Origin: Niallia alba
Lineage (GTDB): Bacteria > Bacillota > Bacilli > Bacillales > Cytobacillaceae
DNA: 64,000 bases
Assembly: GCF_012933555.1 (NCBI RefSeq)
Contig: NZ_JABBPK010000001.1
Coordinates: forward strand, 3,078,001-3,142,000
Direction of reading: 5' to 3'
Shown here one piece after another: positions 27,775 through 50,909 of the stretch. The notes below the pieces were generated by a model that searched no databases, was not told where the DNA came from, and saw only the letters and a program-made list of their open reading frames with translations. Numbering within the stretch: position 1 is the first letter of the stretch; each line of letters begins with the position of its first letter. The position numbers were made by a program, and so were the translations under genes.

Positions 27775-27933
27775 ATAAAGTGAAACTGCCATCAGTGGGG
27801 GTTTTCCTTCATCCCCCACTGATGGTTAGTTGAACCAATCGGACCTTTACGGACAGTTGATCTCCCACCTATCTTCCTTGTATTCTCATATGCTTGAGGG
27901 GGGAGTCTTACTGTCCGTTAAGAGTGGGATAAA
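27775..27933 (+). repeat. dispersed structured repeat, well-conserved copy
   Basis: ATAAAGTGAAAC start, GATAAA end. Hairpin 1: CCATCAGTGGGGG and its exact complement around an 11-nt loop. Hairpin 2: ACGGACAGT paired with ACTGTCCGT across about 55 nt, with inner CTCCC/GGGAG. Lies 66 bp upstream of ypdA and 60 bp past the gudB stop. Confidence 0.9.
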
Positions 27934-27995
27934 TAAGATTAAAGTTTTCCCCAAAAAGCTCCAAAATAAAAAATCAGCAATAGGTTTAGTTAAAT

Positions 27996-29273
27996 TTATA
28001 TCCAACCGCGGAATCTAGATGCTTCCGCCATTTTTCTAACTCCCACCATATATGCTGCTAGTCTCATATCGACACGACGTATTTCAGCAGTATCATAAAT
28101 ATTTTTAAATGATTTGCTCATTACTTTTTCTAATCTTTCTTCCACTTCTTCTTCTGTCCAGTAGTATCCTTGATTATTTTGAACCCATTCGAAATAAGAA
28201 ACAGTTACCCCGCCAGCTGAAGCTAATACATCTGGAACTAATAAAATTCCTCTTTCTGTTAAAATACGAGTAGCTTCTAATGTTGTCGGTCCATTAGCAG
28301 CTTCCACAACAATGCTTGCTTTAATATTCGGCGCATTTTGTTCTGTTATTTGGTTTTCAATTGCTGCTGGAACCAAGATATCGCAATCTAATTCTAATAA
28401 TTCTTTATTCGAAATGGTATTGTTAAATAAGTTTGTAACAGTACCAAAGCTGTCTCTTCTATCCAATAAATAATCTATATCTAACCCTTCAGGATCATGC
28501 AATGCTCCATACGCATCAGAAATTCCAATTATCTTTGCACCCGCATCATACATGAATTTTGCTAGAAAACTCCCTGCATTTCCAAATCCTTGGACAACTA
28601 CTCGTGCTCCTTCAATGGAAATGCCTCTTCTTTTTGCTGCTTCACGAATACAAATGGTTACACCTTTTGCAGTAGCTGTTTCTCGTCCTTGTGATCCACC
28701 TAATACAAGTGGCTTACCTGTTATAAAACCTGGAGAGTTAAATTCATCAATTCGGCTATACTCGTCCATCATCCATGCCATTATCTGCGAATTAGTAAAA
28801 ACATCTGGAGCAGGAATATCTTTTGTTGGGCCGACGATCTGACTAATTGCTCGTACATAGCCTCTACTTAATCTTTCTAATTCTCTAAAAGACATATCAC
28901 GAGGATCACAAACAATTCCTCCTTTTCCGCCACCATAAGGAAGGTCGACAATGCCACATTTTAAACTCATCCAGATAGAGAGTGCTTTCACTTCTGTTTC
29001 GGTAACATTAGGATGAAAACGAATACCACCCTTTGTTGGACCAACTGCATCATTATGTTGAGCACGGTAGCCTGTGAAGATTTTTACAGTTCCATCATCC
29101 ATTCTCACAGGAATTTTAACTGTCATCATTCGAATCGGCTCTTTTAATAATTCATAAACTTCATCTGAATAACCAAGTTTGTTTAAAGCCTTATGAATTA
29201 CTGTTTGTGTTGATTTCAAAACATCGTGTTGCTCTTCTACATGATTCTTCTCATTAGATTTTTTGGCTACCAT
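27996..29273 (-). CDS. gudB: NAD-dependent glutamate dehydrogenase
   Basis: Oxidative deamination of glutamate to 2-oxoglutarate. 425 residues. Substrate-binding GPTKGGIRFHP near residue 78, catalytic Lys in LPYGGGKGGIVCDP near 112, nucleotide-binding VQGFGNAGS near 225. The 3-codon insertion that silences gudB in the B. subtilis laboratory strain is absent here, so the enzyme should be active. Next to ypdA as in B. subtilis. Confidence 0.97.
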   Translation of the reverse strand: MVAKKSNEKNHVEEQHDVLKSTQTVIHKALNKLGYSDEVYELLKEPIRMMTVKIPVRMDDGTVKIFTGYRAQHNDAVGPTKGGIRFHPNVTETEVKALSIWMSLKCGIVDLPYGGGKGGIVCDPRDMSFRELERLSRGYVRAISQIVGPTKDIPAPDVFTNSQIMAWMMDEYSRIDEFNSPGFITGKPLVLGGSQGRETATAKGVTICIREAAKRRGISIEGARVVVQGFGNAGSFLAKFMYDAGAKIIGISDAYGALHDPEGLDIDYLLDRRDSFGTVTNLFNNTISNKELLELDCDILVPAAIENQITEQNAPNIKASIVVEAANGPTTLEATRILTERGILLVPDVLASAGGVTVSYFEWVQNNQGYYWTEEEVEERLEKVMSKSFKNIYDTAEIRRVDMRLAAYMVGVRKMAEASRFRGWI

Positions 29274-29349
29274 TAATAAATCCTCCTAAAAAACTACTAG
29301 TTTATAAACCGTAGTTCTTCTTTATAAGAATAATTATTTAGCATTTTTA

Positions 29350-29508
29350 ATAAAGTGAAACTTCTATCAGCGGGGGTTTTCCTTCCTCCCCCACTGATGG
29401 TTAGTTGAACCAATCGGACCTTTACGGACAGTTGATCTCCCACCTATCTTCCTCGTATTCTCAAAACCTTGAGGGGGGAGTCTTACTGTCCGTTAAGAGT
29501 GGGATAAA
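29350..29508 (+). repeat. dispersed structured repeat, well-conserved copy
   Basis: Almost identical to the copy at 27775. Arm 1 has two substitutions (CTATCAGCGGGGG) that leave most pairs intact; hairpin 2 arms ACGGACAGT/ACTGTCCGT exact. 77 bp upstream of the gudB start. Confidence 0.9.
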
Positions 29509-29957
29509 TGGAAAACATAATTTTGGGCTTAATAGCTAATTCAAAGCATAGTATACACCTTTACCTGCAAGATGCAAGCAAAATTATACAATTGAAATAA
29601 CATAATTATTCAGGAACTTGTTAGTTCCACTATCATCTTGCGATTATTCGTTACGGAAGGTCTACAAATATCATTTTTTCACTGTGGATAACTGTTTTTT
29701 ATTCCTTGTTCTAATATCAGTATATTCAATTAAACGATTCTTTGTCCTACCTCACCCTCATTTAATTATCATCAATTCATTAGTCTCTAAAACTTATTTC
29801 CTTATACGATAAAAATACTTGTGGCTAAACAAAAAAGATGAAAGGATGGGAATAATCTTATGTATCTTCCCTATTTCATTTTAACACTTTCAACAAGTTT
29901 TACCAATCATCAAGTTTTAAATTTTTATGTATTAAAGTTCTTTTAAACACATAAAAA
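29509..29957. other. non-coding spacer between mecB and gudB
   Basis: AT-rich, no ORF with a ribosome site and no repeat that I can see. Probably includes the gudB promoter. Confidence 0.4.
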
Positions 29958-30041
29958 AGATAGACAATTCCAATAAACTGCTGAAGTTTCCATATCTCGT
30001 GTCTCCGAGAACAACTTCAAAAAAATGGAATCATTCTATCT
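29958..30041 (-). terminator. branched terminator of mecB
   Basis: Outer stem AGATAGAATGATTCCA pairing with TGGAATTGTCTATCT, enclosing TGAAGTT/AACTTCA and a TCTCG/CGAGA hairpin; minus strand continues with TTTTTTATG. Larger than an ordinary terminator. Confidence 0.8.
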
Positions 30042-30054
30042 ACTTTATGGAGGA

Positions 30055-30636
30055 TTAAAAATAATGCACCAATGTCTCCAATGCATTCTCTTTTTTTATT
30101 ATATTTCCATATTCTTCAATGATGTATATGCTCTTTAAACTTACTTCTCCATACTCGCTTAGGATGGCAATAATTTGTTCCTCTTTAAACGAAGAAATAT
30201 CAACAAAGCATAAATAATACATTCCATTAAAATGATATAAAGAACCGCCATAAAAGGCATTTTGCACTAACTGCTTTGCGGCATTTATTACATCTTCTAT
30301 ATCCTTAAACTCATATAATATATCCACTGTTTCTTCTACTGTTACTTGCATCTCTAAGAAACCTTCAGATAATAATTCTTCCGTATCCAATTCACTTTCA
30401 CTTATTGTTAAAATCATAACCATGCCTTGAGCTTTCATTGAAAATATCTCAACAGCTACCGATCCGTGTATCTCCATGTCAAATAAATCATTGGCTTCTT
30501 CAAGCATTTCATGAAAAAAATACTGCCACTTTATCGAGTCTTTCCATATATCTTCCTTTGTCAATCCACGTTCATACAAATCATCGGTGGTCAGATGGAT
30601 TTTAATTCTGTTGCTATTTAATCTCTCCAAACGCAT
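30055..30636 (-). CDS. mecB: MecA-like adaptor protein MecB (YpbH)
   Basis: Adaptor that delivers substrates to the ClpC protease. 193 residues from ATG 30636 (MRLERLNSNRIKIHLT), after GCAGGAGGCG; a frame extending to 30747 is not supported. N-terminal domain LTTDDLYERGLTKEDIW, acidic linker around residues 85-95, C-terminal ClpC-binding domain. The N-terminal start matches YpbH of B. subtilis rather than MecA. Confidence 0.93.
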   Translation of the reverse strand: MRLERLNSNRIKIHLTTDDLYERGLTKEDIWKDSIKWQYFFHEMLEEANDLFDMEIHGSVAVEIFSMKAQGMVMILTISESELDTEELLSEGFLEMQVTVEETVDILYEFKDIEDVINAAKQLVQNAFYGGSLYHFNGMYYLCFVDISSFKEEQIIAILSEYGEVSLKSIYIIEEYGNIIKKENALETLVHYF

Positions 30637-30793
30637 GACTACGCCTCCTGCCTGCTCCTTGAAAAAACTCTTACTGCAGTTTATGAAAGGAAGGAGTAAT
30701 CGGTGAGTAATATTCCAAAGTGGTTCAGGCTTTGCTTGAAAAGCCAATATTTCGCTAAGAACGGTTGATTGTACTTACTACAAACATCTTAAT

Positions 30794-31582
30794 TCATTCA
30801 TCATTTTGTTTATGTTTAATACTTATAATATGTGTTTCTGGCTTTGCTCCTAATCTTAACGGAATACTAGTTGTTCCATACCCATTACTAACAAATACAG
30901 TCGTATTTTCAATTACTTTTGCTCCACCTAATTCATATGGTCCGAAACCAAATATTCGTATTTGCCCTCCATGAGTATGCCCGCTTAATATGAGGGGAAT
31001 CTGTTCTACCTCATTCATTTTTTCTATTATTTTCGGATTATGGCTCACTAAGAGTTTAAAATCATTGGCATTTGTTTGCTCTAACGCTTTTTCTAAATCA
31101 TCATGCTCTAAAGAATAATCTTCAATCCCAATTAAGGACCAACTTTCTTCTTTATCTGATTGGAAAGAAATTGCTTTATTATCCAATAAGATAATGTCCT
31201 CTTCTTTCAATAAAGTTTCTAAAACATCTCGATCAATTTCGTAATCATTATTCCCCCAAACAAAATAAACAGGACCAATTTTTTTTAACTTCCGTAGATT
31301 CTCCCGGGTTTTTTCCAACTTTACACCCTTTTCTAAAAGATCTCCTCCTATTATGACAATCTCCGCAACATTGATTGCTTCATTAATGATGGTATCATCA
31401 ACAGTTCTTCGATGAATATCTGAAATAAAGAAAAGGGTAATTTCTCGGATTGAAGATGGAAAGTTTGGAAAATAAAAAATCTCATATTTTACATTATTCT
31501 CATTTGCAATTTTTCTCATATATATTAATAAAGCCACCCCTAAAAAAACAAGTAAAATGAAAGTAACAAGTAAGAATATCAT
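30794..31582 (-). CDS. ypbG: membrane-anchored metallophosphoesterase (YpbG-like)
   Basis: 262 residues. One N-terminal membrane segment (1-21), then a calcineurin-like domain with metal-binding motifs DIHRR (~55), GGDLLEKG (~77), GNNDYE (~110), SHNP (~182) and GHTHGGQ (~204). Substrate not known. Same neighbour as in B. subtilis (mecB/ypbH). Confidence 0.92.
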   Translation of the reverse strand: MIFLLVTFILLVFLGVALLIYMRKIANENNVKYEIFYFPNFPSSIREITLFFISDIHRRTVDDTIINEAINVAEIVIIGGDLLEKGVKLEKTRENLRKLKKIGPVYFVWGNNDYEIDRDVLETLLKEEDIILLDNKAISFQSDKEESWSLIGIEDYSLEHDDLEKALEQTNANDFKLLVSHNPKIIEKMNEVEQIPLILSGHTHGGQIRIFGFGPYELGGAKVIENTTVFVSNGYGTTSIPLRLGAKPETHIISIKHKQNDE

Positions 31583-31816
31583 AAAGTCCCCCTAAAATTC
31601 CTCTTTTTTCATTGAATGATTCTTATATTTTAATACACCTTCTACATGAATTACCATTTTTAAGAAAAATCTTCTCCCCTTTATATACCACTGTTTAAGT
31701 TCTTTTATTACGATTGCTGAATATTTATCGGCAAAATATAAAGTTGCCCGCTTTTTTTACCTTTTAAATGTTTTTTACTAAAACAACAAGGGTAGTTGAA
31801 GCTTTTTTAAAAGCAA

Positions 31817-31845
31817 GCATGGAAATAAAAATTTTATCATAGGAT
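31817..31845 (+). promoter_or_regulatory. possible SigE-type promoter of cotJABC
   Basis: GCATGGA, 14-nt spacer, CATAGGAT. The -10 resembles the SigE CATAnnnT consensus and the cotJ operon is known to be SigE-controlled in B. subtilis; the -35 is weak. Confidence 0.45.
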
Positions 31846-31877
31846 GTAAAGTAAACCCCAGAAAAGGAGGGAATTCT

Positions 31878-32093
31878 ATGCCGTCATTCTACAAAGAATA
31901 TCACCCTTATATCAGCCCATTTGATCCTTGTCCACCAATAAAAACAAAAGTATATTCAACCCCGCCGAATTTATACTTAGGTTTTCAGCCACCACATCTT
32001 CCTCAGTTTAGTCCAATGGAAGCATTAAAAGCAGGAACCTTATGGAAAACATTTTACGATCCTTACTACGGTCCTAACGAAAAAAAGAGCTAA
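31878..32093 (+). CDS. cotJA: spore coat protein CotJA
   Basis: 71 residues, proline- and tyrosine-rich. The central PPHLPQFSPMEALKAGTLWK and DPYYGP are typical of CotJA. AAAAGGAGGG precedes the ATG. First gene of the cotJABC coat operon, whose products enter the inner coat. Confidence 0.96.
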   Translation: MPSFYKEYHPYISPFDPCPPIKTKVYSTPPNLYLGFQPPHLPQFSPMEALKAGTLWKTFYDPYYGPNEKKS

Positions 32094-32107
32094 GGGAGTG
32101 ATATTGA

Positions 32108-32368
32108 ATGAAGCAGCTTCCACCGGAATACTATCAATTATTAGAACAACTCCAAGCAATCGATTTTGTACTAGTTGAACTCACCTTATACTTAGATACC
32201 CACCATTATGATCAAGATGCCATTAATCAATTTAATCATTATGTGAAAGAACGTGAAAAGTTCAAAAAATTATATGAAAGTAACTATGGTCCTTTATTGC
32301 AATATGGAAACAGCCCATCTGGTTCACCATGGGATTGGGATTCTGCCCCTTGGCCTTGGCAAGTATGA
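32108..32368 (+). CDS. cotJB: spore coat protein CotJB
   Basis: 86 residues: an N-terminal helical region ([21 protein letters not shown]), [16 protein letters not shown], and a C-terminus rich in Trp and Pro ([15 protein letters not shown]), all characteristic of CotJB. Starts 14 bp after cotJA with GGGAGTG. Confidence 0.97.
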
Positions 32369-32409
32369 TGTCAAAAATTTAATTTTGCGATAAAGGAGAA
32401 TGGAATCTT

Positions 32410-32979
32410 ATGTGGTTATATGAAAAAAAATTACAATACCCCGTAAAAGTAAGTACTTGCAATCCAATGCTTGCCAAATTTTTAATTGAACAATATGGAG
32501 GTGCTGATGGAGAACTTGCAGCAGCATTAAGATACTTAAATCAGCGGTACTCTATACCTGATCGCGTTATTGGATTATTAACAGACATAGGTACAGAAGA
32601 ATTTGCTCATTTAGAAATGATCGCTACCATGATATATAAATTAACAAAAGATGCTACACCCGAACAACTAAAGGCAGCCGGTATAGGTGACCACTATGTT
32701 AATCATGACCATGCGCTATTCTATCATGATGCTTCCGGCAACCCTTGGACTGCCGCTTATATTCAAGCAAAAGGTGATCCAATTGCTGATCTTTATGAAG
32801 ATATAGCAGCCGAGGAGAAGGCAAGAGCGACATACCAATGGATCATCAATATGAGTGATGATCCTGATTTAAATGATAGTCTCCGTTTTCTAAGAGAACG
32901 CGAAATCGTACACTCTCAACGTTTTAGAGAAGCAGTTGAAATTATTAAAGAAGATCGCCAGCAACGAAAGATTTTTTAA
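32410..32979 (+). CDS. cotJC: spore coat protein CotJC, manganese catalase-like
   Basis: 189 residues of the Mn-catalase fold: EEFAHLEMIATMIYKL and EEKARATYQWII carry the Glu and His residues expected to bind the dimanganese site. Third gene of the operon. In B. subtilis CotJC is packaged in the coat and interacts with CotJA. Confidence 0.97.
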   Translation: MWLYEKKLQYPVKVSTCNPMLAKFLIEQYGGADGELAAALRYLNQRYSIPDRVIGLLTDIGTEEFAHLEMIATMIYKLTKDATPEQLKAAGIGDHYVNHDHALFYHDASGNPWTAAYIQAKGDPIADLYEDIAAEEKARATYQWIINMSDDPDLNDSLRFLREREIVHSQRFREAVEIIKEDRQQRKIF

Positions 32980-32996
32980 TTATGTTTTTTCTTATA

Positions 32997-33039
32997 TAGA
33001 CAAAAAGATACCTCCTTTATTTAGGTATCTTTTTGTCTA
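32997..33039. terminator. cotJ operon terminator
   Basis: 17-bp perfect stem TAGACAAAAAGATACCT with its complement, 9-nt loop. Works for both converging genes (cotJC and ypbF). Confidence 0.92.
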
Positions 33040-33103
33040 TTTATTCTTTTAAACAGCTTTAATTTTTGACTAATTAGTATATTTTTCTGCAACAACCTAT
33101 TTT

Positions 33104-33562
33104 TTACTTAGCTTGATGAAATAAATTAATATCATAGGTATTTTTGATTGTATTATATATTTCATGACGGACATTCCAAGTCTCACTATTTCCGAATAGA
33201 TCTTTGCTTTTATCGATAAATTCACAACGAAGATCATGGAACTCCTTTTCCGCTTTATCCCTTTTTTGCCTAACGACATTCATATATCCAAAAGCACCTA
33301 TAATTAATAGGAGAATATATAAATTCAACGTTTCTTGAACATACACAGAAAACATGACTGCGAATGAATGGGAATACGGGATAGCAATGTGCTTATACAA
33401 CCAAATGAAATAACAAAAAGCAGCAAAGATTGTAAACCACATAACCAGTAAATGCCTGTTTTTTAACTTATCATATTTTTCTTTTTTCTCTATAATTTTC
33501 AGCAAAACTTTTTTTGTTGTTCCATCTAACTCATAGCTTTCAGGGAAGATCGAGCGTTCCAT
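33104..33562 (-). CDS. ypbF: DUF2663 family membrane protein (YpbF-like)
   Basis: 152 residues from ATG 33562, after AAAGGAGGGAG. Two membrane segments (about 38-58 and 78-96) with cytosolic charged ends. Size, topology and position match B. subtilis YpbF. Function unknown. Confidence 0.83.
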   Translation of the reverse strand: MERSIFPESYELDGTTKKVLLKIIEKKEKYDKLKNRHLLVMWFTIFAAFCYFIWLYKHIAIPYSHSFAVMFSVYVQETLNLYILLLIIGAFGYMNVVRQKRDKAEKEFHDLRCEFIDKSKDLFGNSETWNVRHEIYNTIKNTYDINLFHQAK

Positions 33563-33667
33563 AGTCACTCCCTCCTTTAAATAGCACATGTTAAATTTAT
33601 AAATCTAACACTTAAATCATGCTTTATTTAACTATATGTAGATAAAGGACAAGTTAGAATAGAATTA

Positions 33668-34393
33668 TTATGGTTCGATTACAATTTTTAACGTTTGCCC
33701 GAGTTGAACCTGATCTGATGTCATATTATTGGCTGCTTTGATTTTTTCCATCCCATTTCCACTAGGATAATATTTTAATGCAATTCGATATAAATTTTCT
33801 CCTTTTGCTACTGTATGATAGACAATCTTTTCTTTAGAATTAGTTTGCTGAGTGTCTTCTTCCGTTTTCTTTTCTTCTTCCTTCGGTACATTATTTACCG
33901 GTTCCTCAGAATCAGTCTTATTTTCTTTGGATTTATCCTCTTCTTGTTCTATATCATTTTCTTTTATATTATCTGTTGCTATCTCTTCTTCTTCAACTGT
34001 TGAATTACTTTCTATCACTATATCCTCTTGTTCATCCCCCTTATCGTCACTGGGTGTTTCATCATTATTATTCATTCGATTTTCTTTTTGAATATTAACA
34101 TTTTCAAATAACCCAGTCGTACTTTCTGTTGATAAAAGATTGGAAAAATCTTTCCCATTTAACAAACTATTTATTAATAATAAGGTTACTGGTAATAAAA
34201 TAAATAAAAATGCTAATAAGCTTATTACCGGTATTTTTATTTTTTTCTTTTTATTCTTATGAACAGTACTTCTTGAAGGTAAAGACGATTCCTTCTCTTG
34301 GAGTTTTTCTGTTGCTTCTTCTTCATTTGTCACTTTCTTTAATCGTTGTTTCTGTGTTTCTGCTTGAACCCTGTATGGATCTTCTTTTTTCAT
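33668..34393 (-). CDS. ypbE: membrane-anchored LysM protein (YpbE-like)
   Basis: 241 residues from ATG 34393 (MKKEDPYRVQ). Cytosolic N-terminus rich in Lys and Glu, one membrane segment (about 63-85), an acidic low-complexity extracytoplasmic stretch (85-190) and a C-terminal LysM peptidoglycan-binding domain (YHTVAKGENLYRIALKYYP...). Likely cell-wall attached; role unknown. Confidence 0.88.
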   Translation of the reverse strand: MKKEDPYRVQAETQKQRLKKVTNEEEATEKLQEKESSLPSRSTVHKNKKKKIKIPVISLLAFLFILLPVTLLLINSLLNGKDFSNLLSTESTTGLFENVNIQKENRMNNNDETPSDDKGDEQEDIVIESNSTVEEEEIATDNIKENDIEQEEDKSKENKTDSEEPVNNVPKEEEKKTEEDTQQTNSKEKIVYHTVAKGENLYRIALKYYPSGNGMEKIKAANNMTSDQVQLGQTLKIVIEP

Positions 34394-34432
34394 AAACATC
34401 CCATCCTTACAATTCCCCATAATTTCCTAAAC

Positions 34433-34588
34433 ATAAAGTGAAACTTCCATCAGTGGGGTTTTCCTTCCTCCCCCCACTGATGGTTAGTTAAGCCAATCGG
34501 ACTTTACGGACAGTTGATCTCCCACCTATTCCTCGTATCCTCATAAGCTTGAGGCGGAAGTCTTACTGTCCATTAAGAGTGGGATAAA
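34433..34588 (+). repeat. dispersed structured repeat, well-conserved copy
   Basis: Arms CCATCAGTGGGG / CCCCACTGATGG exact; ACGGACAGT paired with ACTGTCCAT (one change). 40 bp upstream of ypbE. Confidence 0.9.
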
Positions 34589-34621
34589 GCAGCTGCTTCA
34601 CAAAGCGTACTCTTTTTATCT

Positions 34622-35206: not shown

Positions 35207-35215
35207 CGACATTGC

Positions 35216-39108: not shown

Positions 39109-39176
39109 AGTAGTTTAAAGGTACGCACACTTAATAAACGTTCTTATAGAATATTTTGAACGATTGCAGAACCTCC

Positions 39177-39304
39177 ATCTTCTCCCATCCAGACTTTACT
39201 GTCGGTTTTGGAATTTCACCAAATCAACCTACCGTAGTAGGGTCACGGACTTTGAGTATATAACTCATCACCGTCGGTCGGGAATTTCACCCTGCCCCGA
39301 AGAT
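39177..39304 (-). ncRNA. FMN riboswitch (RFN element)
   Basis: Minus strand carries the conserved RFN blocks in order: ATCTTCGGGGCAGGGTG, GAAATTCCCGACCG, GGTTGATTTGGTG, AAAACCGACAGTAAAGTC, and GGATGGGAGAAGAT closing the basal helix. Known to bind FMN and terminate transcription. Located upstream of ribU only. Confidence 0.97.
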
Positions 39305-39420
39305 AGACCAATATTAATTTGTTTACATTAGTTATTATACATTAAACAATAACGATTTGTGAAGAAGTTTGCTTATAACTTCATACATTGTTCACATTTT
39401 CACATTATAATATACATTCA

Positions 39421-40796: not shown

Positions 40797-40932
40797 ATAA
40801 AGTGAAACTTCCATCAGTGGAGGCTTTCCTTCCCCACTGATGGTTAGTTGAACCAATCGGACCTTTACGGACAGTTCATCTCCCACCTATGCTTGAGGGG
40901 AGAGTCTTACTGTCCGTTAAGAGCGTGATAAA
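40797..40932 (+). repeat. dispersed structured repeat, well-conserved copy
   Basis: Arms CCATCAGTGG/CCACTGATGG; hairpin 2 arms ACGGACAGT/ACTGTCCGT exact, with the internal loop shortened by about 20 nt. About 250 bp upstream of the M23 gene and 80 bp before an IS4-family element. Confidence 0.9.
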
Positions 40933-42416: not shown

Positions 42417-42460
42417 ATTTATACTCTTTTTATTCTATTTTTTTATCTTTAAAAAATATC

Positions 42461-42498: not shown

Positions 42499-42499
42499 A

Positions 42500-43678: not shown

Positions 43679-44198
43679 AAGGATCCTCCTTTCCATCGTC
43701 TTCTAAAATGGTACGTAGTGCCTTTAATGCTCGATGCTGTGTAGTTTTCACTTTACTTTCAGTCCACCCTAATGCTTTGGCAGTTTCAGAAATGGATAGT
43801 TCTTGAATATACCTAAATACAATAACCATGCGCTGGTCTACTGTACAATATTGTAATGCATGATAAACACCTTTCACTTCTTCAGCCTGCAGTGCGATTT
43901 CTTCAGGAAGAAACCCATCCGCTTTGATTTCCTGTTTGGACCAGTCAAACTTATCCATGATACGTTCTTTCCAATTTTTTTGTTTACGAAAATGGTCTAT
44001 TGCAACATTTCTGGCAATACTAAACAACCATGTTTTCTCGGTACTTTTCCCCTCAAAGCGATGATAAGATTTCAGGACACGAATATATACTTCTTGCACT
44101 AGATCTTCCGCCGTTTCTTTATGATTTACCATGTAAAATAAAAATTGAAAAACGTCATGATGATACTTATTATAGATTTCATCAAAAACGGAGTTCAT
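43656..44198 (-). CDS. sigX: ECF sigma factor SigX
   Basis: 180 residues from ATG 44198 (MNSVFDEIYNKY), after GGGAGGG; a frame from 44219 has no site. Sigma-2 (DLVQEVYIRVLKSY, TWLFSIARNVAIDHFRKQK) and sigma-4 (SISETAKALGWTESKVKTTQHRALKAL) domains. Controls cell-envelope functions in B. subtilis. Followed by RsiX and preceded by a SigX-type promoter. Confidence 0.93.
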   Translation of the reverse strand: MNSVFDEIYNKYHHDVFQFLFYMVNHKETAEDLVQEVYIRVLKSYHRFEGKSTEKTWLFSIARNVAIDHFRKQKNWKERIMDKFDWSKQEIKADGFLPEEIALQAEEVKGVYHALQYCTVDQRMVIVFRYIQELSISETAKALGWTESKVKTTQHRALKALRTILEDDGKEDPYAETKME

Positions 44199-44226
44199 CT
44201 TATTCCCTCCCCCGTTCAATATATTA

Positions 44227-44252
44227 GTCGTATTTTAATTTAATTAGTTTCA
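44227..44252 (-). promoter_or_regulatory. SigX-type autoregulatory promoter
   Basis: TGAAAC (-35, 44247-44252), 16-nt spacer, CGAC (-10, 44227-44230) on the minus strand, about 30 nt before the sigX ATG. Matches the TGtAAC-n16/17-CGaC consensus for ECF sigma factors of this type. Confidence 0.78.
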
Positions 44253-44319
44253 TTCATTCGTATGTATATTCTACTTTTCTTTTATCCCTTCGTAAAAACA
44301 CAATAAAAAAGGAGTCCAG

Positions 44320-44406
44320 AAAAGTTTGACCTCACAAGTTATACCTGTATGCAAAAACATTATACATACAAAATGGAAAAATAGCTTGTAGGGTCAAAAT
44401 CTTTTT
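44320..44406 (-). terminator. resE terminator
   Basis: ~20-bp imperfect stem (AAAAGTTTGACCTCACAAG / CTTGTAGGGTCAAAA) enclosing a GTATG/CATAC hairpin, followed by CTTTTTTATTG; about 65 bp past the resE stop. Confidence 0.75.
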
Positions 44407-44472
44407 AAGACACCCCATACGTTCTATTATGTTAAATTGTTTCGCGTGAATCAAGAAGAATCGGCACTTTCT

Positions 44473-46245
44473 CTAATTTTCTTCTCTATTTCGAGGTAAA
44501 AAGATAAAAAATGTCGTTCCTCGACCATATTTACTATAAACAGAAATATCGCCACCATGTGCATCAATAATATTTTTGACAATAGCTAATCCTAAGCCTG
44601 TCCCAGCATTCCCTCTTGTTCTTGCTTTATCCGCTTTATAAAAACGCTCAAACACATATGGTAAATCCTCCTCAGGAATACCAGAACCCGTATCTTCAAT
44701 CTCTATATATACTCCATAATCATCCGATCTACCTCGTAAAAAGACAGTTCCATCACTTGGCGTATGTCGCATACTATTATCCATTATATTGGTTAAAACT
44801 TGCTCGACACGATCTGGATCAAGGTCATATTCGCCAATATCTTCGGTAACAGAGACAGTAAGCGTTATTTCTTTCTCTTTAGCGACTGCATTAAACTTTC
44901 TAGCTACTCGGTTGATAAATGGATATAGATCAATTGGTTCCTTTCTCAGCTCAATATAGCCAGTTTCCATTCGGGCTAAATCTAAAAATTCGTTAACTAG
45001 ACGCCCCATTCGTAAGGACTCATCATAGATTACCCGAGCCATTTCTCTTTTTTCTTCCTCTGATTCAGCAATATCATCCACAATTGCCTCACTATACCCT
45101 TGTAACATACTTATCGGCGTTCTGAGTTCATGAGATATATTTGCAATAAAATCAATTCGAAGTTTATCTAGCTTACGCTCTTCTGTCATATCGCGAATAA
45201 CAACAATTGCTCCTCTAATATCCTTTTTGTTATAAAGAGGACTAACAATCATGACCCAGTTCCTACCTTGTAAAGTTACTTCATCTATTTGTTCATTACC
45301 TGTATGAACTGCAAGCTGAAATAATTTCCGCAATTCATCCGGTATTTGAGCTTGCATATCGCTCAATTCGCCTTTTTCATAATACCAATGCTGTAGAAAT
45401 TTTTCAGCAGGCGGATTGGTAAGCAATAAACCGCCATTTCGATTAAGTGTTAGCACACCATCTGCCATTCCACTTAAAATATTGTCTAGCTGTTCCTTTT
45501 CTTGGCTTAAGGCATTCATATTAAAATTTAATTTTCTAGCCATTTCATTGAATGCAATCGAAAGTTCACCAATTTCATCCTGAGCCATGATAGGAACTTT
45601 TGCCGCAAAATTACCTTGAGCTACTTCAAATGCCGCTTCTCGCATCTTTCTTAACGGGGCAGTGATTCTTGTTAATAAGAAAAAGGCAAATATCGTCGTT
45701 AAAATAATGGCAATTACGGCAGCTAAAACAATGAATTTTGCTGTGGATTGTTTAGATTCATTCATCGATTGTAAGGACTGATAGATAAAAACAGCTCCGT
45801 CCTCCCCATTCACATGAAGAGGAGACCCCACAATTGCTACCTGTTCAGGTATATTGTCTTTATTGTTTAATTTTGTCATAACGACCGCTGTCTTATTACT
45901 TGTTATCACGTTATTTAAAGCTTCATTTCCCTTAATGAAAGAATAGGAAAGTTCCTGCATGCGACTCTCTGGGTAATAATAGACTTGATCTGGAGCGGAA
46001 ACAATAATTGCTCCTGTTGAAGGATCCAAAAGTTCCCGCACAATTTCCAATCTAGTTTGATTATTATGCTCTTTCATAATTTCGGATATTTTTGTGGCTG
46101 TATTGGTTAATTCCGTTTCTGTTTGCTCCTTATAGTATTGTTCAAAATACTCAAGAAGCATGATTGTTAAAATCGTTAGTACTACGGAAACTAGTAATAA
46201 AAAGGTGATCCAAAGCTTAAATACTACGCTTCGCCAAAATTTCAT
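44473..46245 (-). CDS. resE: sensor histidine kinase ResE
   Basis: Sensor for low oxygen and nitric oxide; phosphorylates ResD. 590 residues: two membrane segments (12-32 and ~167-187) around an extracytoplasmic domain, HAMP (~188-240), PAS (~255-350), H-box HELRTPISMLQGYSEA (~370), and ATPase motifs NIMDNSMRHT, DTGSGIPEEDL, GTGLGLAIVK. Overlaps resD by 4 bp. Confidence 0.96.
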   Translation of the reverse strand: MKFWRSVVFKLWITFLLLVSVVLTILTIMLLEYFEQYYKEQTETELTNTATKISEIMKEHNNQTRLEIVRELLDPSTGAIIVSAPDQVYYYPESRMQELSYSFIKGNEALNNVITSNKTAVVMTKLNNKDNIPEQVAIVGSPLHVNGEDGAVFIYQSLQSMNESKQSTAKFIVLAAVIAIILTTIFAFFLLTRITAPLRKMREAAFEVAQGNFAAKVPIMAQDEIGELSIAFNEMARKLNFNMNALSQEKEQLDNILSGMADGVLTLNRNGGLLLTNPPAEKFLQHWYYEKGELSDMQAQIPDELRKLFQLAVHTGNEQIDEVTLQGRNWVMIVSPLYNKKDIRGAIVVIRDMTEERKLDKLRIDFIANISHELRTPISMLQGYSEAIVDDIAESEEEKREMARVIYDESLRMGRLVNEFLDLARMETGYIELRKEPIDLYPFINRVARKFNAVAKEKEITLTVSVTEDIGEYDLDPDRVEQVLTNIMDNSMRHTPSDGTVFLRGRSDDYGVYIEIEDTGSGIPEEDLPYVFERFYKADKARTRGNAGTGLGLAIVKNIIDAHGGDISVYSKYGRGTTFFIFLPRNREEN

Positions 46246-46958
46246 CCATTGTTAACCTCAAACTTATAGCCTACTCCCCAAACAGTTACAATCATGCTAG
46301 CCGCTTCTTCTGAAACACGATTGAGTTTTTCTCTTAATCGTTTCACATGTGTATCTACTGTTCTTAAATCACCGAAAAATTCATAATGCCATACTTCTTT
46401 TAATAATAATTCCCGGTCAAATACTTTATCTGGTGATTTAGCTAAGAAATACAACAATTCATATTCCTTTGGAGTTAGGCCCACTTCCTTCCCACTTGCC
46501 AATACGCGATGTGCATCATGATCTATTGTTAAAGCTGGAAAGATGATAACATCCTTTGAAGAACTATCACTTTGTTCAAATGTCGTTTTTGTAGAGCGAC
46601 GCAACAGAGCTTTCACTCGCAAAACTACTTCTCTTGGACTAAATGGCTTTACGATATAATCATCCGTTCCAACTTCAAATCCTTGAACTCTATTTACTTC
46701 TTCTCCTTTAGCAGTAAGCATGATTACAGGAGTAGTTTTCTTTTCTCTTAACTCCTTACATACCTCCATACCATCTTTCCCAGGCATCATCAGATCGAGT
46801 AAGATAACATCATAATCTGTGTTTAATGCCTTAGAAAGGGCGCTCATTCCATCTTCCGCTTCTTCCACCACAAACTCTTCTCTTTCTAAGTACATTTTTA
46901 GAAGACGTCTAATTCTTTCTTCGTCATCTACCACAAGGATTTTAATTTCTTTCTCCAT
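46242..46958 (-). CDS. resD: response regulator ResD
   Basis: 238 residues: receiver domain with phospho-Asp in DVILLDLMMPG (Asp ~56), Lys in VKPFSPREV, then an OmpR-type winged helix (LTPKEYELLYFLAKSPDKVFDRELLLKEVW, DTHVKRLREKL). Activates fermentative and nitrate respiration genes and aerobic cytochrome genes in B. subtilis. Coupled to resE; upstream spacer to rluB 294 bp. Confidence 0.97.
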   Translation of the reverse strand: MEKEIKILVVDDEERIRRLLKMYLEREEFVVEEAEDGMSALSKALNTDYDVILLDLMMPGKDGMEVCKELREKKTTPVIMLTAKGEEVNRVQGFEVGTDDYIVKPFSPREVVLRVKALLRRSTKTTFEQSDSSSKDVIIFPALTIDHDAHRVLASGKEVGLTPKEYELLYFLAKSPDKVFDRELLLKEVWHYEFFGDLRTVDTHVKRLREKLNRVSEEAASMIVTVWGVGYKFEVNNG

Positions 46959-47252
46959 CGTTCATACCTCCTAACAAAAATACACGAAACTTGTAATCGA
47001 CTTGTTGTTTCGCTTGGTGCATGTATAAATAAATCTTAATTTCTTTTGCTTATTCATCAAATGGACTCATATTTATACTGCGTTTTTTCCAGTTAAATAG
47101 TAATTTATATAAGTGAATTTATCTTATCTGACACAATTATTATAGCATTATTATCATGTAGATATTGTTATCATCCATAAGCAAATGTGACACTTTTATG
47201 AACTTTTCGTATATTTCTGTTGTTATCATATTGCAAATATTAAAATTGTACC

Positions 47253-47981
47253 TTAGCCCTTTTTCTTTTGAGCTTCTGCTCTTAACAATTTCACTTCATG
47301 TGCAGTGAGTTCACGAGCGTCACCAGGCTGTAAGCCATTTAAGTTTAAGAAAGAGTATCTCTCCCTTTTTAATTTCATAACAGGTGTTCCAATTGCTTCA
47401 AACATTCTTCTTACTTGACGGTTTCTTCCTTCATGAATTTTTAATTCCACAATGCTTGTTCCTTTTTTCTTATCGACAGAAAGAATTTTTGCTTTGGCAG
47501 GCGCAGTTTTACCGTCCTCTAGCATAATTCCTCTTTCAAGTTGTTTTACTTTCTCACGAGCAGGAATACCTTTTACTTTTGCAACGTATACCTTTTCAAT
47601 TTCTCCTTTTGGATGCATCATAATATTTGCAAATTCTCCGTCATTCGTTAAAAGAATAATGCCTGATGTATCATAGTCTAAGCGTCCTATCGGATAAATT
47701 CTTGCTTCAATTTCAGAAAAATAATCAGTGACAACTTTTCGTCCTTTATCATCATTAACACTTGAGATTACGCCTCTTGGTTTATATAGAATAAAATAAA
47801 CCGGTTCTTCTCTCTCAACAGGGATGCCATTTACTTCAATTTTATCATTAGAACCTACTTTCACCCCTAATTCTTTCACTGTTTTTCCATTTACTTTTAC
47901 TTTTCCTTCAACAATTAATTCCTCTGCTTTTCTTCTTGATGCAATTCCCGCATGGGCAATTACTTTTTGTAGTCTTTCCAT
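47253..47981 (-). CDS. rluB: 23S rRNA pseudouridine synthase RluB
   Basis: 242 residues: N-terminal S4 RNA-binding domain (LQKVIAHAGIASRRKAEELI), then the RsuA-family catalytic domain with the active Asp in GRLDYDTSGI (~104) and RQVRRMFEAIGTPV. In bacilli it lies upstream of resABCDE; here resD follows directly. Confidence 0.95.
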   Translation of the reverse strand: MERLQKVIAHAGIASRRKAEELIVEGKVKVNGKTVKELGVKVGSNDKIEVNGIPVEREEPVYFILYKPRGVISSVNDDKGRKVVTDYFSEIEARIYPIGRLDYDTSGIILLTNDGEFANIMMHPKGEIEKVYVAKVKGIPAREKVKQLERGIMLEDGKTAPAKAKILSVDKKKGTSIVELKIHEGRNRQVRRMFEAIGTPVMKLKRERYSFLNLNGLQPGDARELTAHEVKLLRAEAQKKKG

Positions 47982-48398
47982 CTATATCACCTCATCCAAT
48001 TTCTCAACAGTAAAAAATGATTGATCGTTTTTTATAACATATTTCTAAAGTTATATACCCTCTTCTATTAGTAACAATTTATTAGAAAACAGACTAATTC
48101 AAAACGCTTGATCGTTCTTTTTTTGCCATTCCTATGAATTATGACATAAATTGATGAAATTTCAAAGAAATCTTTGATTTAAGAGGCAATTGATTTACAT
48201 TTAACGATTTTCCCTTCCAAAGACTCTTTACATTTTATTTATCATTCTAACCTGAAACCTGAATATTTTTGCGGCAACCTCGCCTTTTTTGCTATTCCCG
48301 TAGGAGTCTTCATGGATCCAATTTGCTGAGTATTTTCTCTGTCGCAAACCTTTTTTTAGTGCTAATCGAAAAAAATGCTCAATGAAAAAAACAAAAAA
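47982..48398. other. non-coding spacer between spmB and rluB with a diverged hairpin
   Basis: No gene. A weak hairpin spans 48268-48358 (TTTGCGGC...GTCGCAAA) enclosing CCCGTAGGAGTCTT, which resembles short palindromic elements scattered in Bacillaceae. Promoter of rluB presumably here. Confidence 0.4.
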
Positions 48399-48440
48399 TG
48401 TCTTAGGATAAAGTTTACTTACAAACTTTATCCTAAGACA
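48399..48440 (-). terminator. dacB-spmA-spmB terminator
   Basis: 18-bp perfect stem TGTCTTAGGATAAAGTTT, 6-nt loop, then six T on the minus strand. Confidence 0.95.
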
Positions 48441-48448
48441 CGGGCTAG

Positions 48449-48982
48449 TTATTTTCCAAACATTAAAGTTACTACTATTATTGCTGCAATAAATCCTACG
48501 AGATCTGCTAGTAATCCTACTTTTAAGGCGTCTCCCATTTTCTTGATTCCTACTGCTCCAAAATAGACGGTTAATACATAAAGGGTGGTATCGGTACTTC
48601 CTTGTATAACAGAGGCGAGCCTTCCTATAAACGAGTCTGGTCCATAGGTAGCAATTAAATCGCTTGTCATCCCCAATGCTGCATTTCCGGATATTGGTCT
48701 AATGATCGCAAGTGGTGCTACTTCCGACGGAACACCGATAAAATCTAAGACTGGCTTAAGAAAACTCATAAAATATTCTAATGCTCCAGATGCTCGAAAT
48801 ATAGATATGGAAACAAGCATTCCTACTAAATAAGGGATAATAGAGAAAGCAATCTGTATTCCTTCTTTCCCACCTTCTACAAAACTTTCATATGTGGGTA
48901 CCTTTTTAAATGTTCCGTACAACAAAATAAACCCTATGAGGGAAGGAATCATCCACAATGAAATTAATGATACAATCTCCAT
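48449..48982 (-). CDS. spmB: spore maturation protein B
   Basis: 177 residues, mostly hydrophobic with about five membrane segments and the Gate/nucleoside-permease-like core (VPSEVAPLAIIRPISGNAA). Needed for spore core dehydration together with SpmA. 6 bp after spmA. Confidence 0.96.
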   Translation of the reverse strand: MEIVSLISLWMIPSLIGFILLYGTFKKVPTYESFVEGGKEGIQIAFSIIPYLVGMLVSISIFRASGALEYFMSFLKPVLDFIGVPSEVAPLAIIRPISGNAALGMTSDLIATYGPDSFIGRLASVIQGSTDTTLYVLTVYFGAVGIKKMGDALKVGLLADLVGFIAAIIVVTLMFGK

Positions 48983-48988
48983 CTCATG

Positions 48989-49585
48989 TCACCCTTTTCT
49001 CATTCTCTTATGATAAAAATAGCGATCAATCAAAATTCCACTTATACAAGAGAAAATGGTGGCAATAATGGTTGGTCCTACTATATCTGTCGGAGACGCA
49101 GAATGGTAATTCATCCTGATTGCAATTACTGTTGTTGGAATTAATGTAATACTTGAAGTATTTAGGGCAAGAAAGGTAATCATACTATTGCTTGCAGTAT
49201 TCTTGCCCCCATTCAATCGTTTCAATTCCTCCATTGCTTTAATTCCTAACGGTGTTGCTGCATTTCCCAACCCAAAGATATTTGCCATCATATTTGACAA
49301 GATATATCCCATTGCAGGGTGATTCTTTGGTATCTCTGGAAAAAGTCTTGCTACAAATGGTCTAAATAAGTTAGTAAGCTTTCGCAATAATCCTGCCTGC
49401 TCTGCTATTTTCATCATTCCGAGCCAGAAGACAAGAACACTAATCAGCCCAATACATATGGTTACTGCTTCTTTAGCTCCTGAGAATATTGCTTTGTTGA
49501 CTTCATCCATCGTTCCGTTTATTGCTGCGAACACAATACCGATAATAGCTAGGGCTGCCCAAATATAATTAACCATCCTTGCCAA
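48989..49585 (-). CDS. spmA: spore maturation protein A
   Basis: 198 residues, membrane protein with MANIFGLGNAATPLGIKAMEEL, the diagnostic SpmA segment. Overlaps dacB by 17 bp; dacB-spmA-spmB form the SigE-controlled operon known in B. subtilis, setting cortex cross-linking and core water content. Confidence 0.96.
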   Translation of the reverse strand: MARMVNYIWAALAIIGIVFAAINGTMDEVNKAIFSGAKEAVTICIGLISVLVFWLGMMKIAEQAGLLRKLTNLFRPFVARLFPEIPKNHPAMGYILSNMMANIFGLGNAATPLGIKAMEELKRLNGGKNTASNSMITFLALNTSSITLIPTTVIAIRMNYHSASPTDIVGPTIIATIFSCISGILIDRYFYHKRMRKG

Positions 49586-50720
49586 CCCCAGTCATTGCCA
49601 AAAACATGTTCTTAAAATAATCTAAAAAGCTTTTTGATTCCTTTGCCTTATCATGCTTAAAATGTATCGGTGTACGATCAACAAGCTTACCATCTAAATA
49701 GATTTTTGCTTCTCCAACAATTTCAGGCACATACTCTTGATTCTTTTGCCAATTTTTTTTAACTTTTAACAGACTGTATTCTACTTTAAATAGATCTTCT
49801 TCCTTGTCTGTAACAGGGTATTCTATGTCGGATTTGATATAAACTTTATTCTTATAAAATTTATTTTTAACCGATTTTATTTTCCCTTCCTCCAGAACCT
49901 GAACTTTTTTATACTCTTTAAAGGCTGTTTCAAACATATTTATATGATCATCCCAGTCATCTGGATCATTTAAAGTTACTGCTATATATTCAACTCCATC
50001 TTTTTCAGCTGTGCTAACTAACGTTCTTTTCGCTCTCTTTGTATAGCCAGTTTTGCCCCCAGTCGAATATTCATAAAGACTCGTTAATAGTTTGTTCTTA
50101 TTTCTCCAAACACGATCCCACTTATTATTTGAACTTTCCGAACGATAGCTTTCTGTGCCAGCAATTTTTTTATATGTATCATTATTCATTGCATAACGGG
50201 TAAGCAAAGCCATATCATACGCTGAGGAATAATGGTCTTCATGATCGTCAAGTCCGTGAGGATTAGCAAAATGAGTGTGCTTCATACCAATTTCTTCTGC
50301 CTTTTGATTCATTAAATAGACAAAACCATCTAAGCTTCCACCCACTGTTTCTGCGATTGCAACTGCAGCATCATTTCCAGAACGGAGCATTAATCCATAT
50401 ACAAGATCTTCTAGTTTTATTTTTTCTCCTGCCTCTAAATAGATGGACGACCCTTCCGTTTTTATTGCATTGTTACTAACAGTCACGGTTTCATCTAATT
50501 TCCCCGACTCGACTGCAAGTAATGCTGTCATTATTTTTGTAATACTAGCAATTCTTCGCTCCGTATGTGCATCCTTCTCAAAAATAACTCGTCCAGAATC
50601 TTGTTCCATTAAGATAGCACTTTGCGCATTGACGTACATTTGTGCACTGCTTTTTTGTGGAACAGCAAGAAACAGAATGGAGGTAATGATCGTAAGAATA
50701 ATAAGTTTACGTAATTTCAT
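49569..50720 (-). CDS. dacB: sporulation D-alanyl-D-alanine carboxypeptidase DacB (PBP5*)
   Basis: Trims stem peptides in the cortex and so limits cross-linking. 383 residues: signal peptide 1-26, penicillin-binding motifs SITK (SxxK, ~65), SGN (RSGNDAAVA, ~120) and KTG (GGKTGYTK, ~227), then a C-terminal domain. Signal and three motifs intact. A structured repeat lies 68 bp upstream of its start. Confidence 0.96.
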   Translation of the reverse strand: MKLRKLIILTIITSILFLAVPQKSSAQMYVNAQSAILMEQDSGRVIFEKDAHTERRIASITKIMTALLAVESGKLDETVTVSNNAIKTEGSSIYLEAGEKIKLEDLVYGLMLRSGNDAAVAIAETVGGSLDGFVYLMNQKAEEIGMKHTHFANPHGLDDHEDHYSSAYDMALLTRYAMNNDTYKKIAGTESYRSESSNNKWDRVWRNKNKLLTSLYEYSTGGKTGYTKRAKRTLVSTAEKDGVEYIAVTLNDPDDWDDHINMFETAFKEYKKVQVLEEGKIKSVKNKFYKNKVYIKSDIEYPVTDKEEDLFKVEYSLLKVKKNWQKNQEYVPEIVGEAKIYLDGKLVDRTPIHFKHDKAKESKSFLDYFKNMFLAMTGVGKDG

Positions 50721-50787
50721 TTAACACAACCTCGTCTCCTTTTATGGTTTGTACAAGTTTATGAAAAAAAAGACAGACATATGACTA

Positions 50788-50909
50788 ATAAAGTGAAACT
50801 TCCACGAGTGGGTGTTTTCCTTCCTCCCCCACTCATGGTTAGTTGAACTAATCGGACCTTTACTTAAGTTTGAGGAGGGAGTCTTACTGTCCGTTAAGAG
50901 TCGGATAAA
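50788..50909 (+). repeat. dispersed structured repeat, shortened copy
   Basis: ATAAAGTGAAACTTCC start and TAAGAGTCGGATAAA end. Hairpin 1 arm is CCACGAGTGGG and its partner CCCACTCATGG, with a C-G pair replaced by G-C, which keeps the stem. The left arm of hairpin 2 (ACGGACAGT) has been lost with about 45 nt. Confidence 0.88.

What the first reader, a model, noticed from the sequence alone, without database searches (positions are those of the whole stretch)
27775..50909. Dispersed family of ~120-160 bp structured intergenic repeats
Five well-conserved copies (27775-27933, 29350-29508, 34433-34588, 40797-40932, 50788-50909) and three diverged ones (2280-2416, 11359-11474, 23061-23205). Seen: ATAAAGTGAAAC at one end, TTAAGAGTGGGATAAA at the other; hairpin 1 with arms CCATCAGTGGGGG; hairpin 2 with arms ACGGACAGT. 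No ORF, no terminal inverted repeats, no family I recognise by name. Either a structured RNA or a non-autonomous mobile element.
Basis: partly seen in the sequence, partly recalled or inferred. Interest (0 to 1): 0.8.

Follow-up and report, generated by a model that had tools for sequence, protein, structure and literature searches.

The report
Hairpin DNA hitchhiker of Bacillus genomes
This is a gene-free mobile DNA element of about 155 letters that has inserted well over a hundred times in this bacterium's genome, mostly between genes and nearly always in the same direction relative to DNA replication, which suggests that it moves as single-stranded DNA with an enzyme supplied by something else.

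Summary
The genome holds at least 150 matches (the scoring cap) at 118 sites, eight of them tandem arrays. 87 of 249 genomes drawn from the order, the own one included, have a match. Both hairpins show compensatory changes; no Rfam family matches.

A structured RNA is not supported: stem mismatches favour neither strand. A mobile element is. One locus is empty in four relatives. At 110 of 118 sites the strand TTTAT-CCCACTC...GTTTCACTTTAT lies on the lagging-strand template, whatever the flanking genes' strand. In 48 high-scoring copies the left TTTAT varies in 12, the right in none: a host target on the left, not a target duplication. This fits IS200/IS605-like single-strand insertion 3' of TTTAT.

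It resembles bcr1 of the B. cereus group, described as restricted to that group; sequences could not be compared. The transposase is unidentified: neither Y1 genes in general nor a REP-type one co-occur significantly with the repeat, and no coding copy was found. Rfam family Bacillaceae-1 is sometimes nested in relatives.

The parts
27775..27933 (-). copy 1, full length 159 bp including both pentamers; strand given is the one read as TTTAT...TTTAT ('active strand')
   Evidence: 186.6 bits; in the model's alignment
27929..27933 (-). left TTTAT of copy 1 (host target pentamer in the proposed model)
   Evidence: left pentamer variable among copies
27910..27918 (-). left-end hairpin, 5' arm (ACGGACAGT on the active strand)
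   Evidence: covariation
27849..27857 (-). left-end hairpin, 3' arm (ACTGTCCGT on the active strand)
   Evidence: covariation
27825..27842 (-). conserved junction CCGATTGGTTCAACTAAC between the two hairpins
   Evidence: a pattern derived from it was used
27813..27825 (-). right-end hairpin, 5' arm (CCATCAGTGGGGG on the active strand)
   Evidence: covariation
27789..27801 (-). right-end hairpin, 3' arm (CCCCCACTGATGG on the active strand)
   Evidence: covariation
27775..27779 (-). right TTTAT of copy 1 (element-encoded in the proposed model)
   Evidence: unchanged in 48 of 48 non-array copies scoring 140 or more
29350..29508 (-). copy 2, full length; its site is empty in four relatives
   Evidence: 183.9 bits; in the model's alignment; empty site
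34433..34588 (-). copy 3, full length
   Evidence: 158.8 bits; in the model's alignment
40797..40932 (-). copy 4, internal deletion in the left-end hairpin loop
   Evidence: 145.8 bits; in the model's alignment
50788..50909 (-). copy 5, much of the left-end hairpin deleted, both ends kept
   Evidence: 113.1 bits
2275..2424 (+). diverged copy, opposite orientation
   Evidence: 61.3 bits, E 4.5e-13
23059..23205 (-). diverged copy
   Evidence: 52 bits, E 8.7e-11
11395..11474 (-). possible remnant, marginal
   Evidence: 18.4 bits, E 0.016; 23-base end match

Best explanation
A non-autonomous mobile element of about 155 bp that moves as single-stranded DNA. Read on the active strand it is TTTAT | CCCACTCTTA-[left hairpin]-CCGATTGGTTCAACTAA-[right hairpin]-AAGTTTCAC-TTTAT. 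A transposase supplied in trans recognises the two folded subterminal hairpins on the exposed lagging-strand template. It cuts after the left TTTAT (host sequence) and after the right TTTAT (element sequence), and joins the excised strand 3' of another TTTAT in a lagging-strand template. Shown: dispersal, one empty site, TTTAT boundaries, asymmetry of the two pentamers, replication-linked orientation independent of genes in the own genome, two covarying hairpins, tandem units sharing one pentamer. Inferred: that the strand moves as ssDNA, that the left pentamer is the host target, that the enzyme is of HUH Y1 (IS200/IS605 TnpA-like) type, and that it is lost or unrecognised in several hosts.
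For: Copy number and spread: 150 matches (scoring cap), 118 sites, 8 tandem arrays of 3-8 units; 87 of 249 genomes, 53 of 106 genera (own genome included). Orientation: active strand on the lagging-strand template at 110 of 118 sites for an assumed terminus at 2.70 Mb (108 and 109 for 2.55 and 2.62 Mb); dnaA/dnaN-type genes at contig start (read by eye) and GC-skew sign change between 2.73 and 3.08 Mb. Not explained by genes: leading-sense at 6 of 6 sites between two lagging genes, 7 of 7 convergent, 19 of 21 divergent, 66 of 72 leading-leading (106 of 110 sites had both neighbours called). A second genome, G016: 80 of 99 listed sites fit one split near mid-chromosome, 0 of 300 shuffles reach this. 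Over 120 loci of named genomes the active strand agrees with local GC skew in 80 of 124 cases. Pentamers: of 48 non-array copies scoring 140 or more, left differs from TTTAT in 12, right in 0, p 0.0005; at 125 or more 17 vs 3 of 72, p 0.0026, never both (recount). Empty site at copy 2 in G008, G009, G007, G012. Hairpins. Array joins carry one TTTAT; mean identity within arrays 0.954-0.989 versus 0.855 between 45 single copies. Insertion into the lagging-strand template and recognition of subterminal structures by IS608/ISDra2: PMC6006769 (abstract and passages).
Against: No transposase was tied to it. Matches to the REP-type Y1 protein occur in 15 of 24 repeat-bearing versus 21 of 36 repeat-free genomes, p 0.79; any Y1 in 21 of 24 versus 26 of 36, p 0.21 (repeat presence by BLAST with one copy, which misses diverged members). 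Three repeat-bearing genomes (G002, G024, G028) have no Y1 hit. In G002 and G024 the ten or so best copies are diverged (best non-adjacent identity 0.89 and 0.88), but in G028 their median is 0.92, above the own genome's 0.853 (10 best copies there versus 60 of 85 here), so G028 speaks against a resident Y1. No coding element was found between the two ends in 91 Y1-related loci (342 kb) or in the other loci held. G031 shows no significant split (37 of 50; 39 of 300 shuffles reach it), and the cross-genus GC-skew agreement is only 65%. In lower-scoring copies the right pentamer varies too (score 90 or more: left only 22, right only 9, both 2, of 99). Only one of three window sites gave a readable empty site, and there the relatives do not show an intact TTTAT: they read one base longer at the pentamer.
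Confidence: 0.63

Rival explanations
1. A site-specific recombinase (tyrosine type, possibly acting on folded single strands as integron integrase does on attC) inserts the unit at a 5-bp TTTAT core; tandem arrays are cassette-like.
For: [quoted passage not shown] tandem units share one TTTAT; a degenerate copy on a B. arachidis plasmid lies near an annotated site-specific integrase gene, possibly by chance. G028's repeats without a Y1 hit also leave room for another enzyme.
Against: Integrase genes were not searched for. Arrays are internally more alike (0.954-0.989) than single copies (0.855), which looks like local amplification rather than serial capture. A double-strand recombinase would be expected to leave host-type cores on either side; in copies scoring 140 or more only the left side varies.
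Confidence: 0.14
2. A classical MITE moved by a DDE transposase, with TTTAT as target-site duplication.
For: bcr1-3 are called MITE-like in PMC3446304 (passages), and PMC3733652 lists Bcr1 among MITEs (passage).
Against: No terminal inverted repeats. In copies scoring 125 or more, 20 of 72 had a non-TTTAT pentamer on one side and none on both. A DDE element gives no obvious reason for lagging-template bias independent of genes.
Confidence: 0.05
3. A structured RNA (small RNA or UTR element) spread by copying, kept for its RNA fold.
For: Strong covariation. In B. cereus 84 of 165 and 62 of 155 intergenic bcr repeats (all 18 families) are part of an mRNA (PMC3446304, passages).
Against: Stem mismatches show no consistent wobble excess on either strand: G-T 88 vs A-C 71 in own copies, 43 vs 59 in diverse ones. 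Orientation follows replication, not genes. No Rfam match.
Confidence: 0.06
4. An RNA-mediated insertion (reverse transcription into the lagging strand, as for some group II introns) or insertion guided by the fork by another route.
For: Lagging-template bias alone does not name the enzyme.
Against: 155 bp is too short for a ribozyme of that kind (general knowledge). No link to a reverse transcriptase was looked for.
Confidence: 0.04
5. Polar chromosomal sites kept in one orientation for a replication or segregation function (KOPS-like).
For: 93% orientation agreement over 118 sites; the two 0.5-Mb bins around and beyond the assumed terminus hold the most sites (15 and 20, others 6-14; none of the sites lies beyond 5.0 Mb).
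Against: Patchy occurrence (87 of 249 genomes) and an empty site in relatives of the same genus.
Confidence: 0.04

Closest known systems
bcr1 (and bcr2-bcr3) of the Bacillus cereus group
   Same: Size about 155 bp (recalled; 147 and 167 bp in PMC2267715, passage), structured, tens of copies, mobility associated with TTTAT (PMC6542083, passages), called MITE-like (PMC3446304, passages).
   Different: bcr elements are stated to be specific to the B. cereus group (PMC6542083); this family spans many genera of Bacillales. Sequence identity with bcr1 was not tested: its letters were not at hand, and two of the original papers asked for are not held.
PATEs (palindrome-associated elements related to IS605-type transposons, Haloquadratum)
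   Same: No terminal inverted repeats, near-terminal palindromes, a 4-5 base target at the 5' end, transposase-free elements more numerous than transposons, and small repeats (SMR-A) inserted in the palindromes (PMC3119063, passages).
   Different: PATE ends resemble known IS605-type transposons; here no coding relative was found. Different domain of life and sequence.
IS200/IS605 insertion sequences (IS608, ISDra2)
   Same: [quoted passage not shown] insertion 3' of a short fixed target (recalled).
   Different: No tnpA or tnpB; guide-to-cleavage-site pairing not demonstrated.
REP/REPIN elements with REP-associated Y1 transposases
   Same: Small hairpin repeats tied to single-strand transposases (recalled).
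   Different: Longer, TTTAT-bounded, and the REP-type Y1 gene of these genomes (NF047646, 77.5 bits, just under its cut-off of 80) does not co-occur with the repeat.
Bacillaceae-1 RNA (Rfam RF01690)
   Same: Also a dispersed repeat of Bacillales, and nested inside this element in some genomes.
   Different: Not matched by the repeat itself; no match reported in the own genome.

Membership tests
bcr1 family | length about 155 bp, bounded by TTTAT | tested here: met
   146-162 bp with both pentamers in 48 non-array copies scoring 140 or more; left TTTAT 75 of 102, right TTTAT 89 of 102 non-array copies
bcr1 family | sequence similarity to bcr1 | not testable with these tools
   bcr1 letters not at hand; papers not held; the only B. 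cereus group trace seen is a degenerate 72% match on a B. arachidis plasmid
bcr1 family | restriction to the B. cereus group (as published) | tested here: not met
   many other genera; this bears on the published claim only if bcr1 proves homologous
IS200/IS605-type non-autonomous element (PATE-like) | no terminal inverted repeats, subterminal hairpins at both ends | tested here: met
IS200/IS605-type non-autonomous element (PATE-like) | target pentamer host-derived on the left, element-derived on the right | tested here: met
   by pattern of variation: 12 vs 0 of 48 (score 140 or more), 17 vs 3 of 72 (125 or more), 22 vs 9 of 99 (90 or more); not shown directly by the one empty site
IS200/IS605-type non-autonomous element (PATE-like) | active strand on the lagging-strand template | tested here: met
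   own genome; G016 yes, G031 not significant; 80 of 124 across genera
IS200/IS605-type non-autonomous element (PATE-like) | ends shared with a Y1 transposase-coding element | tested here: not met
   none found in the loci held (not whole genomes); therefore not filed as a member, only as working like one
IS200/IS605-type non-autonomous element (PATE-like) | single-stranded circular intermediate, excision by TnpA | not testable with these tools
   needs a bench assay
REP/REPIN with REP-type Y1 transposase | co-occurrence with such a gene | tested here: not met
   15 of 24 vs 21 of 36, p 0.79 (presence = any match at E 0.001 to the own protein)
MITE (DDE type) | terminal inverted repeats and target-site duplication | tested here: not met
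structured RNA family | match to an Rfam model | tested here: not met
structured RNA family | wobble pairs favoured on the transcribed strand | tested here: not met
   (with the fixed G-T pair left out); one search shows the counts with it included
integron cassette / attC | recombination by an integron-type integrase | not tested
   no search for integrases was made

The most novel reading that the evidence does not exclude
A Bacillales-wide superfamily of fork-inserted single-strand DNA elements, to which bcr1 would belong, moved by an enzyme outside the Y1 (PF01797) family or by an unrecognised Y1 lineage, and serving as a landing platform in which Bacillaceae-1 'RNA' repeats nest, so that this Rfam RNA would itself be a mobile DNA module.
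Probability: 0.2. Interest if true: 0.8.

Novelty: new variant of a known kind. Interest (0 to 1): 0.58.

Why it matters
How bcr elements move has been left open ('possible site-specific recombination-like', PMC6542083). If this family is their relative, the orientation bias and the pentamer asymmetry give a concrete, testable mechanism and widen the host range from one species group to much of Bacillales. It also suggests that a catalogued RNA family, Bacillaceae-1, should be re-examined as a dispersed, possibly mobile, DNA repeat.

Tried and rejected
REP-type Y1 transposase beside yifB (L039/L040; labels) as mobiliser: rejected as the obligate partner, no co-occurrence. IS200-like insertion sequences of the own genome (L031-L038, eight PF01797 matches, one interrupted by a stop): no similarity of their loci to either end of the repeat and different terminal hairpins by eye; but four of them (L031-L034) start after a TTAT-like flank, so they are not excluded as helpers. 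Search for a coding element with the same ends: none. The four left/right-end pairs 0.4-4 kb apart were looked at by their ORFs: L302, L356 and L122 hold ordinary-looking genes by eye, L157 an interrupted Y1 gene between two separate copies. Target-site duplication: rejected on pentamer asymmetry. Gene direction as the cause of orientation: rejected. Serial insertion as the origin of arrays: disfavoured. A dif sequence recalled from memory gave no match with 3 mismatches; GC skew was used instead. Empty sites at copies 1 and 3: flanks too diverged to read. Phage records and the exact core pattern in viral contigs: no match. Orientation in G031: not significant. Homology to bcr1: not resolved. 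Searches of the held papers listed no paper on this family outside the B. cereus group, judged from titles and abstract starts; most subscription papers are not held.

On checking, three statements were mended: the copies of G028 are not clearly old, site density is highest next to the assumed terminus, and the empty site lacks an intact TTTAT in the relatives; confidence in the best explanation was lowered from 0.66 to 0.63, and two rivals raised by 0.01 each.


Full report
Observation. A covariance model, R1, was built from 48 copies of several genomes and one plasmid. In the window it finds those five copies (four of which were in its alignment), two diverged ones at 2275-2424 (opposite strand) and 23059-23205, and a marginal trace at 11395-11474; other listed hits are antisense or chance-level. 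No Rfam family matches the repeat.

Scale. In the own genome R1 gives 150 matches, which is the scoring cap (150 of 1936 candidates), so 150 is a lower bound. They fall into 118 sites, eight of which are tandem arrays of 3-8 units. Of 249 genomes drawn evenly from the order (own genome included), 87 have a match, in 53 of 106 genera, with stricter filters and 12 candidates scored per genome. The exact pattern is absent from viral contigs, and phage records gave no match to copy 1. Plasmid hits were few (5 records each).

Anatomy. On the strand called active here (minus in the window for all but one copy) the order is TTTAT, about 10 bases, left hairpin, junction CCGATTGGTTCAACTAA, right hairpin, AAGTTTCAC, TTTAT. 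TAAC stands at the 5' foot of the right hairpin in at least 42 of 48 aligned copies and at that of the left hairpin in at least 28 of 48; whether it acts as a guide sequence, as in IS200/IS605 elements, is inference. Pair counting on the MAFFT alignment gives 96.0% of cells paired and 15 of 27 pairs changed on both sides against a shuffled mean of 4.2; 0 of 500 shuffles reach any of the five measures; sliding the partners drops pairing to 31-43%. The sequences are related, so the shuffle count is not a probability.

DNA rather than RNA. If one strand were selected as RNA, G-U pairs should be tolerated and the mirror mismatch A-C should not. Leaving out one fixed G-T pair, the counts are 88 versus 71 in 119 own copies and 43 versus 59 in 139 diverse copies (with that pair included the G-T counts are 199 and 176). 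Mutation bias could blur this test, but it gives no support to an RNA on either strand.

Orientation. The contig starts with what look by eye like dnaA and dnaN, and GC skew changes sign between 2.73 and 3.08 Mb. The active strand is on the lagging-strand template at 110 of 118 sites with the terminus put at 2.70 Mb, and 108 or 109 with 2.55 or 2.62 Mb. Genes cannot explain this: of 106 sites with both neighbours called by a simple ORF rule (110 sites examined, 3 overlapping an ORF), the repeat is leading-sense at 6 of 6 sites between two lagging genes, 7 of 7 convergent, 19 of 21 divergent and 66 of 72 leading-leading sites. In G016, 80 of 99 listed and merged sites fit one split near mid-chromosome (0 of 300 shuffles); in G031 the split is not significant (37 of 50; 39 of 300). 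Over the 120 named loci the active strand agrees with local GC skew in 80 of 124 cases, weaker than in the own genome.

Boundaries. Among 48 non-array copies scoring 140 or more, the left pentamer departs from TTTAT in 12, the right in none (p 0.0005); among 72 scoring 125 or more the numbers are 17, 3 and none on both sides (p 0.0026); among 99 scoring 90 or more, 22, 9 and 2 (p 0.029) (the 12 are listed). A target-site duplication would change both sides together. A left-side host target with a right-side element-encoded site is the IS200/IS605 arrangement (general knowledge). Outside the pentamer the flanks are A+T-rich without a clear motif (75 copies). At copy 2 (29350-29508) the site is empty in G008, G009, G007 and G012. 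Own flanks joined with one pentamer align to these sites with a one-base gap at the pentamer, so the relatives do not show an intact TTTAT there; at copies 1 and 3 the region is too diverged.

Arrays. In seven of the eight arrays successive units overlap by one TTTAT throughout; in the eighth one outer unit has another end. Mean identity within arrays is 0.954-0.989, between 45 single copies 0.855, so arrays are best read as local amplification after one insertion.

Mobiliser. The own genome has eight IS200-like PF01797 matches, one interrupted by a stop, and two weaker ones. The protein of one of the two matches the REP-associated tyrosine transposase model at 77.5 bits, just under its cut-off of 80, and overlaps the end of a YifB-family gene. 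Matches to this protein (15 of 24 repeat-bearing versus 21 of 36 repeat-free genomes, p 0.79) and Y1 genes in general (21 of 24 versus 26 of 36, p 0.21) are not significantly associated with the repeat. G002, G024 and G028 carry repeats without any Y1 hit. Their best copies are diverged in G002 and G024, but in G028 they are more alike (median 0.92) than the own genome's (0.853), so loss of a resident enzyme long ago is not shown there. Left-end and right-end profiles found no gene enclosed between them in 91 Y1-related loci nor in the other loci held. In G018, 4 of 10 Y1 loci fetched hold a copy or a short form near the Y1 gene, and in L157 an interrupted Y1 gene lies between two copies in the same orientation; G018 is rich in copies, so this may be chance. 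The enzyme class is thus inferred from behaviour, not shown.

Size classes and nested modules. Other genomes hold matches of about 111, 132 and 214 bp. Longer forms carry an insert in the right-hairpin loop or at the junction; in L354, L386, L157 and L288 Rfam recognises Bacillaceae-1, RF01690, at gathering score, in L333 below it, and in L297, L350, L388 and L390 not at all at that threshold. RF01690 is itself a dispersed repeat in 31 of 61 genomes, up to 71 matches in one, with none reported in the own genome. Of 30 such loci fetched, three (L434, L442, L444) have both ends of the present element around it and one (L430) the right end only; the other 26 show neither end, so nesting is not the rule. 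In Haloquadratum, SMR-A repeats insert into the palindromes of PATEs (PMC3119063, passages); the parallel is striking but only a parallel. PMC4333381 reports doubt about the strand of Bacillaceae-1 (passages).

Known relatives. The closest described elements are bcr1-bcr3 of the B. cereus group: TTTAT-linked, MITE-like, said to be specific to that group, mode of movement open (PMC6542083, PMC3446304, passages). Homology to bcr1 was not tested. I therefore place the family as working like an IS200/IS605-type non-autonomous element (PATE-like) and possibly akin to bcr1, without filing it as a proven member of either.

Noticed in passing
L434, L442, L444, L430; L157, L288, L354, L386; L333 (below gathering score): Rfam RF01690 (Bacillaceae-1 'sRNA') is a high-copy dispersed repeat in many Bacillales genomes (31 of 61) and is sometimes nested in the TTTAT element, in the right-hairpin loop or at the junction; 26 of 30 loci fetched showed no end of the element.
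   Followed up: partly
   Followed up: partly
L157 about 940-3430 (G018:C233): An interrupted Y1 transposase gene lies between two complete copies of the element, all in the same orientation; a short neighbouring ORF looks TnpB-like by eye. Described only.
   Followed up: partly
G031 (for example L135 2565-2675): At least ten matches of 108-111 bp with similar scores, apparently an amplified short form.
   Followed up: no
L039, L040 (own genome C1:4586253 and 4566123): Two copies of a block of at least 2 kb, 96.5% identical, with a REP-type Y1 transposase gene overlapping the end of a YifB-family gene.
   Followed up: partly
window 39173-39308, minus strand: FMN riboswitch, 126 bits.
   Followed up: no
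L422 3969-4060 (Klebsiella grimontii plasmid pNY3A): A right-end-like match (84.6% over 65 query bases) directly preceded by a weak left-end match, outside annotated genes, in a gammaproteobacterial plasmid: perhaps a short copy; origin unexplained.
   Followed up: no
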